Assembly: GCA_905234305.1 (NCBI GenBank)
Contig: CAJOHT010000028.1
Coordinates: 1-16,662 of the forward strand
DNA from: an uncultured Ruminococcus sp.
GTDB taxonomy: Bacteria; Bacillota; Clostridia; Oscillospirales; Acutalibacteraceae
Length of the DNA: 16,662 nt
Direction: 5' to 3'
Shown: piece after piece, positions 2,276 through 4,411 of the stretch
How the letters are laid out: every line of letters begins with the position of its first letter
Numbering within the stretch: the stretch's first letter is position 1
Position numbers and translations under genes: made by a program
Notes under the pieces: generated by a model
What the model saw: the letters and a program-made list of their open reading frames with translations, nothing else
What the model was told of the DNA's origin: nothing
Database searches by the model: none

Positions 2276-2280
2276 AATGC

Positions 2281-2596
2281 GACTAAATCTATAAGCCGGG
2301 TTCTGTCGTGAACAGTCATCTATCTTGGCAAGCCGTTGCCGACTTGCTCAACGCCACCTCCACGGGAATGCCGAGCAGACAATACTTCCCTCCACGGTGT
2401 TGCTCCAAACAGGGTTTACACGCCAGGTATGTCTCCATACCAGCGGTGGGCTCTTACCCCACCTTTCCATCCTTACCCGAATAAACGGGCGGAGGTCGCC
2501 CTCGGCGGCCGTTAGCCGTTGTTATCGCTCTATGGAGCCCGGACTTTCCTCGGAAAAATACTTTTCAGAATAGTTCCGCGACTGTTCAATTTACTC
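2281..2596 (-). ncRNA. rnpB: RNase P RNA (bacterial type A)
   Basis: Read on the minus strand, the sequence carries the hallmark conserved regions of the catalytic RNA of ribonuclease P, which trims the 5' leader of pre-tRNAs. GAGGAAAGTCCGGGCTCC lies near the 5' end (about 2533-2550). GGTGGGGTAAGAGCCCACC is the P11/P12 region, here with a short P12. TGGCGTGTAAACC and GGAGCAA follow, and ACAGAACCCGGCTTA lies near the 3' end (about 2292-2306). The two ends pair as P1 with one mismatch (GAGTAAATT at 2588-2596 with GATTTAGTC at 2281-2289). At about 316 nt it is on the short side for the class, but no conserved core element seems missing. The exact ends are inferred from the P1 pairing and the promoter position. 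Confidence 0.95.
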
Positions 2597-2604
2597 GCAT
2601 AAAC

Positions 2605-3889: not shown

Positions 3890-3963
3890 GCGGATATAGT
3901 TTAGTGGTAAAACATCAGCTTCCCAAGCTGAGGTTGGGGGTTCGATTCCCCTTATCCGCTCCA
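3890..3963 (+). tRNA. tRNA-Gly (anticodon CCC)
   Basis: A complete 74-nt cloverleaf with CCA encoded. The acceptor stem GCGGATA pairs with TATCCGC (7 bp). The D-arm is GTTT/AAAC with G18-G19 kept. The anticodon stem TCAGC/GCTGA encloses TTCCCAA, so the anticodon is CCC at 3922-3924, reading GGG. The T-arm has loop TTCGATT and a GGGGG/CCCCT stem with one G-U pair. The gene lies 7 nt after the malic enzyme stop and is followed at once by a strong terminator hairpin. The last 16 bases (3948-3963) recur downstream, which suggests the 3' end has served as an attachment or target site. Confidence 0.95.
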
Positions 3964-4000
3964 TAAATAATAGGCACCCATCAAGGGTGCCTATTATTTA
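3964..4000 (+). terminator. Terminator after tRNA-Gly
   Basis: A 16-bp perfect stem (TAAATAATAGGCACCC at 3964-3979 with its complement at 3985-4000) has a 5-nt loop. It starts directly after the CCA. The A/T ends of the stem supply the T-rich tail, so it can work in both directions. Confidence 0.85.
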
Positions 4001-4013
4001 TTAAACAAGAAAA

Positions 4014-4194
4014 GAGCTGATAAGGGGAATCGAACAGGCTGTGCCAAGGATTAAGCGCAAGCGAAATCCGAAGGTAAAAACAGTCCTGCGGACTGTTTTT
4101 AAGCCGCCGCGTTGATGAACATCTTAGCTTCGCTACTCGTCCCAAGTTTCGAGATTAAAGTTCTTTAATTTATGAACTAAACTTATCCGCTCCA
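4014..4194 (+). repeat. tRNA-anchored repeat element, copy A
   Basis: A non-coding unit bounded by tRNA-derived ends. Its left end (4014-4035) is an inverted copy of the last bases of the tRNA-Gly (3940-3961), 21 of 22 matching, and is followed by AACAGGC. The core holds an 11-bp hairpin with a TGC loop (AAAAACAGTCC at 4076-4086, GGACTGTTTTT at 4090-4100) and then a block ending GCCGCCGCGTTGATGAA (4103-4119). A second small hairpin has arms GGATT and AATCC (4049-4069). The right end is a direct copy of the tRNA 3' end, CTTATCCGCTCCA (4182-4194). No open reading frame of note is present. The same plan recurs in copy B. It may be a non-autonomous element using tRNA ends as terminal repeats; the mechanism is inference. 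Confidence 0.6.
4182..4194 (+). repeat. Direct copy 2 of the tRNA-Gly 3' end (att-like)
   Basis: CTTATCCGCTCCA is identical to tRNA positions 3951-3963. No tRNA body precedes it, so this is only the 3' acceptor end plus CCA, as left by site-specific integration at a tRNA gene or by duplication. Confidence 0.75.
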
Positions 4195-4231
4195 AATTAA
4201 AAGGGCCCAAAATGAGCCCTTTTTAATTTGG
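4192..4231 (+). terminator. Terminator-like hairpin joined to tRNA-end copy 2
   Basis: CCAAATTAAAAGGGC (4192-4206) pairs with GCCCTTTTTAATTTGG (4216-4231) with one bulged T and a 9-nt loop. As after the real tRNA, a T-rich hairpin directly follows the copied CCA, so the tRNA-end-plus-hairpin layout was kept although the sequence of the hairpin differs. Confidence 0.65.
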
Positions 4232-4233
4232 TT

Positions 4234-4382
4234 AGCAGATTCGGGAATCGAACAGCCCGTTAAGAAAACGCTCCGAGGGAGCGTTTTTAGGGCGCCGCGC
4301 TGATGAAACTTTTCTCACATACGTGAACCCTACAGGTGAGATGATGTTATTTCATTAATCCTAAAGCCCCTTATCCGCTCCA
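4234..4382 (+). repeat. tRNA-anchored repeat element, copy B
   Basis: It has the same plan as copy A. The inverted tRNA-like left end is AGCAGATTCGGGAATCGAAC (4234-4253) followed by AGCCCG. Its complement fits the 3' end of a tRNA-Gly of the GCAGAT... type better than the local gene. The core hairpin has a GAG loop (AAAACGCTCC at 4265-4274, GGAGCGTTTT at 4278-4287) and runs into GGGCGCCGCGCTGATGAA (4290-4307). That block matches copy A with 3 differences over 24 bases, counting from the T run. A variable part contains a CTCAC...GTGAG stem (4315-4340). The right end is a direct 16-base copy of the tRNA 3' end (4367-4382). No coding potential is seen. Confidence 0.6.
4367..4382 (+). repeat. Direct copy 3 of the tRNA-Gly 3' end (att-like)
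   Basis: CCCCTTATCCGCTCCA is identical over 16 bases to the end of the tRNA gene at 3948-3963, again without a tRNA body in front. Confidence 0.78.
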
Positions 4383-4385
4383 AAA

Positions 4386-4411
4386 AAGAAGATTCAGGAA
4401 TCAAACAGCCA
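4386..4411 (+). repeat. Truncated left end of a third repeat element, copy C
   Basis: The stretch AGAAGATTCAGGAATCAAAC followed by AGCCAC matches the left end of copy B at 21 of 26 bases. No core hairpin of the A/B type or GCCGCG-TGATGAA block follows. The sequence instead runs into the terminator of the neighbouring minus-strand operon, so this is a decayed or truncated unit. Confidence 0.5.

What the first reader, a model, noticed from the sequence alone, without database searches (positions are those of the whole stretch)
4014..4411. A family of small non-coding elements with a shared hairpin core
Seen: copies A and B both have, in the same order, an AATCGAACAG head, a perfect hairpin with a 3-nt loop ending in a T run, and a block ending GCCGCG(T/C)TGATGAA (3 mismatches in 24 bases). 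The hairpin stems differ in sequence but not in shape (11 and 10 bp), which is the pattern expected for a selected RNA or DNA structure. Copy C keeps only the head. No feature type in ordinary annotation covers this. It could be a MITE-like or REP-like element, a structured RNA, or a transcription stop cassette.
Basis: partly seen in the sequence, partly recalled or inferred. Interest (0 to 1): 0.7.

Follow-up and report, generated by a model that had tools for sequence, protein, structure and literature searches.

The report
tRNA-copying hairpin elements behind tRNAs
Small gene-less DNA elements with a conserved hairpin sit, often in tandem, behind many tRNA genes of these gut bacteria, and most carry one inverted and one direct copy of the end of the very tRNA beside them, a pattern I found no described repeat family to explain.

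Summary
The two window copies belong to a repeat family with 17 strong copies in the same genome and hits in 51 of 60 genomes of the genus. Of 191 cores I collected, 124 have a called tRNA upstream in the fetched stretch, always on the same strand (119 of them within 400 nt; 26 isoacceptors). The hairpin stems differ between copies by compensating changes.

The key feature was missed: in 116 units examined, the left side matches an inverted copy of nt 54-68 of the local tRNA, and 94 of 116 have a direct copy of nt 64-76 on the right, around a shared middle of about 115 nt. A few arrays hold small genes (barstar; Fic-, HipA- and HTH-like).

I read it as a gene-less integrative element at tRNA 3' ends, moved in trans. 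The enzyme is not identified: Y1 and IS110 transposases do not track the arrays, and the own genome shows only two tyrosine recombinases. No Rfam family reaches its cut-off; seven paper searches showed no description. Architecture and distribution are well supported; mechanism and function are inferred.

The parts
3890..3963 (+). tRNA-Gly(CCC) gene, the anchor of the array; its nt 54-76 are the source of the arms
3963..4002. first palindrome between tRNA and unit A (terminator-like by eye; not flagged by the simple scan)
4014..4035 (-). unit A, inverted arm: inverted copy of the tRNA 3' end
   Evidence: 95% complementary to 3940-3961; head at 4028-4037
4035..4111 (+). unit A, core: outer stem GGCT/AGCC with an extra insert of about 30 nt, inner 11-bp hairpin at 4076-4100
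   Evidence: (E = 1.6e-8)
4112..4182 (+). unit A, tail
   Evidence: about 60 nt is usual in the family
4183..4194 (+). unit A, direct arm: copy of the tRNA 3' end with CCA
4194..4229 (.). second palindrome, between units A and B, different in sequence from the first
4231..4253 (-). unit B, inverted arm, more diverged from the tRNA than that of A
4253..4299 (+). unit B, core: outer stem GCCC/GGGC, inner 10-bp hairpin 4265-4287
   Evidence: (E = 6.6e-19)
4300..4366 (+). unit B, tail
4367..4382 (+). unit B, direct arm: copy of the tRNA 3' end with CCA
4391..4410 (+). remnant C: diverged inverted-arm head followed by CAGCC, then host sequence; arrays elsewhere also end in such a cut copy
   Evidence: compare L018, L249, L108

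Best explanation
A family of gene-less, probably mobile DNA elements that integrate at the 3' end of tRNA genes. SHOWN: a unit is [inverted copy of tRNA nt 54-68] - [core of about 50 nt: outer 4-bp stem, perfect 10-bp hairpin with a G-centred triloop] - [tail of about 60 nt] - [direct copy of tRNA nt 64-76]; where a tRNA is called upstream it is on the same strand; units are often in tandem, separated by palindromes; the arms follow the local tRNA, the middle does not. INFERRED: (1) strands are exchanged near the T-loop and the T-stem/acceptor boundary (nt 53/54 and 63/64, where the arms begin), by a recombinase acting in trans or by host recombination; (2) a new unit takes its arms from the local tRNA, so that one core can settle behind many tRNAs without harming them; (3) the hairpin core is the recognition site; (4) arrays grow and shrink by recombination between the repeated tRNA ends and palindromes, and this sometimes traps small genes.
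For: Sharp arm edges and tRNA-specific match (direct arm score at least 8 in 69 of 77 units against the own tRNA, 62 of 1036 against other tRNAs). Fixed orientation, 124 of 124. Covarying core. Tandem spacing of 139-201 bp in 40 of 51 neighbouring pairs. In L108 an exact 74-nt direct repeat from tRNA nt 63 through palindrome and inverted arm stands on both sides of core plus tail. Core plus tail of 61 units: nearest neighbour in the same genome 10 times (2.5 expected) and at the same tRNA elsewhere 16 times (3.5 expected). Occupancy of the same anticodon differs between two species. The same layout, with slightly different edges, in 11 loci of other genera and families.
Against: No enzyme found: of two tyrosine recombinases in the own genome one looks like Xer and the other is short; Y1 in 12 of 23 genomes and IS110 over cut-off in 5 of 28, neither tied to arrays. 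No insertion caught in the act and no empty site with the same flanks. The nearest neighbour of 35 of 61 units is neither in the same genome nor at the same tRNA. In two genomes of another genus the hairpin lies away from tRNAs. Tandem growth alone needs no mobility.
Confidence: 0.5

Rival explanations
1. A two-way transcription terminator or insulator cassette: stacked palindromes behind tRNA operons stop read-through and keep antisense RNA out of tRNA genes; arms and tandem copies are side effects of local duplication.
For: The core hairpin is flanked by A on one side and T on the other and is Watson-Crick on both strands; it lies at operon ends and in none of 7 tRNA-to-tRNA gaps read in the own genome.
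Against: The simple terminator scan flags neither core hairpin nor palindrome in the window. It does not explain arms matching the local tRNA with sharp edges, the covarying outer stem, or the loop G in 149 of 150 distinct cores.
Confidence: 0.15
2. A recombination-site-only satellite: each unit is a minimal attachment site that hijacks integrases of islands and prophages that target the same tRNA.
For: Arm edges fall at the T-loop and T-stem/acceptor boundary, which I recall as usual integrase territory. Integrase genes do lie between a tRNA or tRNA fragment and an array (L121, L350, L354).
Against: One core type is shared over 26 isoacceptors, which would need many integrases. The own genome has 17 copies but only two tyrosine recombinases. 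The adjacent integrases look like ordinary later insertions.
Confidence: 0.12
3. A guide RNA or guide-like nucleic acid: the inverted arm pairs with one strand and the direct arm with the other strand of the tRNA 3' end, as in a bridge RNA.
For: Opposite sense of the two arms, which together cover nt 54-76 with about 5 nt overlap.
Against: No IS110 match in the own genome and none in most array-rich genomes searched; no transcript known; hardly any G-U pairs.
Confidence: 0.07
4. An integron-like cassette site that folds as single-stranded DNA, with the tRNA end as attI and the unit as attC.
For: Arrays with a few genes of the cassette kind (barstar, Fic-like, HipA-like, HTH-like).
Against: Pairing between inverted and direct arm is not kept: of 680 cells at nt 63-70 in 85 units, 197 have a changed inverted arm with an unchanged direct arm and 1 is compensated. 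Most units are empty. I found no integron integrase, but did not search for one by its own model.
Confidence: 0.06

Closest known systems
Integrative elements at tRNA 3' ends (islands, ICEs, prophages)
   Same: Site at the tRNA 3' end; tRNA left whole; direct copy of the tRNA end at the far side
   Different: No genes, about 190 bp per unit, tandem, one core type over 26 isoacceptors, plus an inverted copy of the tRNA T-arm
MITEs, REP/BIME and other short dispersed palindromic repeats
   Same: Short, non-coding, hairpin, many copies, no transposase of their own
   Different: Target-derived arms on both sides; almost bound to tRNA ends; no constant terminal inverted repeats; copy number not tied to Y1/RAYT
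Integron gene cassettes and attC sites (recalled)
   Same: Tandem structured sites in fixed orientation, some with small toxin-antitoxin or immunity type genes
   Different: Arms are copies of a tRNA and their mutual pairing is not conserved; mostly empty; many anchors per genome
IS110 bridge RNA (recalled)
   Same: Two segments of opposite sense that together cover one target site
   Different: No IS110 transposase in the own genome; longer segments; no transcript known

Membership tests
Integrative element at a tRNA 3' end | Direct copy of the tRNA 3' end at the far edge, tRNA intact | tested here: met
   94 of 116 units; edge at nt 63/64
Integrative element at a tRNA 3' end | Own or cognate integrase | tested here: inconclusive
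   No gene in the units seen apart from rare cargo; PF00589 in 19 of 19 genomes, 2 matches in the own genome
Integrative element at a tRNA 3' end | Excision or a free circular form | not testable with these tools
   no reads or strains
MITE | Constant terminal inverted repeats matching an autonomous transposon | tested here: not met
   Ends are tRNA-specific; no autonomous partner found among PF00589, PF01797, PF01548 matches
REP/RAYT system | Y1 transposase gene present with the repeats | tested here: not met
   Absent from array-rich G015, G008, G018, G005, G059 and from G060
Integron attC | Complementary arms that fold the site | tested here: not met
   1 of 680 cells compensated, 197 broken; arms of relatives overlap more but pairing was not tested there
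Integron | Integron integrase gene | not tested
   only the general model PF00589 was searched
IS110 bridge RNA | IS110-type transposase | tested here: not met
   0 matches in the own genome; over cut-off in 5 of 28 genomes
Known Rfam family | Match at or above the gathering score | tested here: not met
   window: only RNase P and tRNA; nothing at cut-off; only tRNAs at cut-off
Intrinsic terminator | RNA 3' ends at the hairpin | not testable with these tools
   sequence scan does not flag the core hairpins

The most novel reading that the evidence does not exclude
An element class whose targeting arms are rewritten at each insertion from the host tRNA: one core can settle behind any tRNA, leave the tRNA whole, stack in arrays and trap small genes, so that the tRNA set of a genome serves as ready-made insertion anchors across Clostridia.
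Probability: 0.3. Interest if true: 0.9.

Novelty: new variant of a known kind. Interest (0 to 1): 0.74.

Why it matters
tRNA 3' ends are the classic landing sites of mobile DNA, each usually tied to one integrase (recalled). Here one non-coding core type stands behind many tRNA operons of a genome with arms that match each tRNA. If the arms are rewritten on insertion, that is an unknown way to retarget DNA. If the arrays capture genes, it is a gene-capture system in gut Clostridia outside the integron. If neither holds, it is still a widespread repeat that I found in no catalogue searched here, and many contigs of these metagenome genomes end in it.

Tried and rejected
One local duplication: rejected, since copies are genome-wide and genus-wide. 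A tRNA-like or tmRNA-like RNA on the minus strand: it would need an acceptor stem from both arms; that pairing is not kept, and folds of the first 16 units that passed my filter show by eye no common fold beyond the core. Known Rfam family: none at cut-off. RAYT/REP, IS110, attC: see the membership test. Phage or plasmid carriage: no blastn match of window 4240-4384; of three exact patterns in viral contigs two found nothing and one found what looks like the host flank of a prophage in a tRNA-Ser gene. A conserved tail: length more than sequence.

Choices that shape the counts: the 191 cores are 130 of 146 hits, 51 of 127 and 10 of 19; I left out duplicates, cut-off, weak and opposite-strand self matches by hand. 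Some named contigs may be the same genomes as G handles, so 191 is not a count of independent copies. 67 of 191 have no called tRNA upstream in the fetched stretch; I did not classify them all (contig ends, short stretches, tRNA fragments behind an inserted island are among them). In one search a core had to pair at 9 or more of 10 inner positions and begin with AAA, which raises inner pairing; the less filtered one search gives 1271 of 1300. One search required an exact head and a direct copy of at least 9 of 13; one search is unfiltered for the inverted arm. One search used a strict pattern, so its list of gene-bearing intervals is incomplete. Genome searches over 40 genomes used stricter filters, and many weaker hits there cover only the hairpin and may be chance.

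Papers: seven searches answered; I saw listings and starts of abstracts. Of PMC2267715 I saw seven passages: stem-loop families in other bacteria, tRNA-related clusters removed. None of these described this family; subscription papers and preprints were not searched. Statements on attC, bridge RNA, MITEs and integrase sites are recalled.

Full report
What is there. In the window the tRNA-Gly(CCC) gene (3890-3963) is followed by a symmetric palindrome, unit A, a second palindrome, unit B and a broken third head (coordinates). They also have, on the left, an inverted copy of the tRNA 3' end (4014-4035 is 95% complementary to 3940-3961; that of B is more diverged) and, on the right, a direct copy ending in CCA.

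It is a family. BLAST with each unit found 6 and 11 places in the same genome; in the 14 loci so fetched ARAGORN calls a tRNA in 11, of many kinds. A covariance model of the core (R1) found 17 copies in the own genome at E up to 0.001 and hits in 51 of 60 genomes of the genus, up to 36 per genome. In the family 60 of 200 genomes and 47 of 135 genera have a hit, in the class 38 of 391 genomes; many of the weaker hits cover only hairpin and outer stem. Of six of those genomes searched whole, Ruminococcus sp. FMBCY1 has 10 matches and Anaeromassilibacillus sp. An172 one strong match, while Gemmiger formicilis has only a weak partial one that may be chance. Eleven or so hits at about 28 bits (model positions 22-47 only) are plain hairpins and probably chance.

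Place and orientation. Of 191 cores collected, 124 have an ARAGORN-called tRNA upstream in the stretch held, all 124 on the same strand, 119 of them within 400 nt, of 26 isoacceptors; 67 have none called. Of 92 cores that start within 110 nt of the tRNA, 86 start at 38-73 nt. In the own genome 29 tRNAs could be read. Seven are followed by another tRNA and have no unit of their own. Of the 22 others, 15 have a matching inverted arm (two of these are cut by a contig end before the core), Pro-GGG has a core with a foreign head, 4 have neither (Thr-CGT, Leu-TAA, Cys, Leu-CAA) and 2 lie at contig ends (counted by hand). Leu-GAG on C111 and a masked tRNA on C172 also have units but are not among the 29.

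The arms copy the local tRNA. For 116 units I compared the inverted arm, without gaps, with the local tRNA and with other tRNAs. The match starts sharply at nt 54; nt 45-53 are at background. Where tRNAs differ it is tRNA-specific: nt 57 93% against 57%, nt 59 94% against 36%, nt 64 85% against 24%, nt 66 78% against 30%, nt 68 65% against 25%, at background by nt 71-72. A direct copy of nt 64-76 (9 or more of 13) is present in 94 of 116; in 85 selected units it matches 99% at nt 64, 73% at 63 and 14% at 62. An earlier test gives the chance level: direct score of 8 or more in 69 of 77 against the own tRNA and 62 of 1036 against others; inverted score of 12 or more in 55 of 77 and 22 of 1036. 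Outside the genus the same layout holds with slightly different edges in the 11 of 20 fetched loci that have a called tRNA upstream: inverted from 50-55 to 61-69, direct from 55-61 to 64-76 (one of the 11, L382, lacks an encoded CCA, so its numbering is unsure).

The core. Among 150 distinct cores the inner hairpin is Watson-Crick at 1493 of 1500 pairs although it has 15 different 6-bp inner sequences; its variable pairs score 99% against 76% in shuffles. The outer stem occurs as GGGC/GCCC (65), GCCC/GGGC (27), GGCC/GGCC (6) and others; without the 24 cores with tandem G-A pairs it is 93% paired against 71% in shuffles. The loop centre is G in 149 of 150. These cores were chosen by pairing; the less filtered count is 1271 of 1300. 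Seven copies from the own genome show 5 pairs changed on both sides; the covariation score exceeds all 500 shuffles, but the number of such pairs does not (188 of 500 shuffles reach it). G-T and A-C pairs are equally rare.

Tandem arrays and cargo. Of 51 neighbouring pairs of cores, 40 are 139-201 bp apart. In L108 an exact repeat of 74 nt from tRNA nt 63 through palindrome and inverted arm stands on both sides of core plus tail. In several arrays the last copy is cut near the start of the core, as copy C is. Twelve intervals of 250-5000 nt were listed; genes in or beside arrays are: barstar (Pfam, over cut-off) and a small unknown protein in L096; a HipA_C-like protein below cut-off between a unit and a partial unit in L014; a DUF1232 protein (over cut-off) and a weak HTH in L180; an HTH-like (L214) and a Fic-like (L395) protein by eye; an unknown 114-aa protein between tRNA and core in L145; an AbrB-like frame by eye after the last cut copy in L008. 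Most units hold no gene.

Dynamics. For core plus tail of 61 units the nearest neighbour is in the same genome in 10 (2.5 expected), at the same tRNA in another genome in 16 (3.5 expected) and neither in 35 (55 expected). So there is both persistence at a tRNA and sharing within a genome. Occupancy differs between two species: Thr-CGT is empty in G000 and occupied in G033, Gly-CCC and Pro-TGG the reverse.

What moves it. Not identified. Tyrosine recombinases occur in 19 of 19 genomes with and without arrays; the own genome has two, of which one looks Xer-like by eye and one is short. Y1 transposase occurs in 12 of 23 and is absent from array-rich G015, G008, G018, G005 and G059 and from G060. 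IS110 is over the cut-off in 5 of 28, two of them array-free, and absent from the own genome. Integrases beside arrays look like those of prophages or islands inserted at the tRNA. Pairing between the two arms is not maintained, which speaks against an attC-like fold and a tRNA-like RNA.

Results that do not fit neatly. G108 (19 hits) and G226 (18 hits) have the hairpin core with no tRNA near in the five loci read. Pro-GGG arrays carry a head that does not match the tRNA T-arm. The terminator scan flags neither palindrome nor core.

Verdict. A widespread family of structured, gene-less elements at tRNA 3' ends with tRNA-derived arms, in no catalogue searched here. Architecture and distribution are well supported; mobility is likely; the mechanism is inferred; function is open.

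Noticed in passing
window 2276-2597 (-): Bacterial RNase P class A RNA gene (Rfam 211 bits).
   Followed up: no
L385-L389 (genomes G108, G226): The same hairpin core in many copies with no tRNA near, among other intergenic repeats; flanks look partly repeated on both sides.
   Followed up: partly
L338, L041, L112: Units behind tRNA-Pro(GGG) carry a head ending in CTCTTGAA that does not match the tRNA T-arm, in three genomes.
   Followed up: no
24 of 150 distinct cores: A core class whose outer stem holds tandem G-A pairs (CC GA CC / GG GA GG) with covarying flanks.
   Followed up: partly
L008, L011, L294, L316: Another repeat of about 110 nt (CTCCTTAT..CTTTTGCTCCCTT..CCGCC..GGCGG..CGCAACGCTAC) that has landed in or beside units.
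   Followed up: no
L121, L350, L354: Integrase genes between a tRNA or tRNA fragment and the array, apparently of prophages or islands inserted at the tRNA.
   Followed up: partly
G000:C172, G000:C60 and many contig ends: Assembly gaps (N) and contig ends fall in the arrays, so copy numbers in these metagenome genomes are probably too low.
   Followed up: no
L096 1997-2662, L395, L214, L145, L180, L014: Barstar and other small immunity, toxin-antitoxin or regulator type genes lodged in the arrays.
   Followed up: partly
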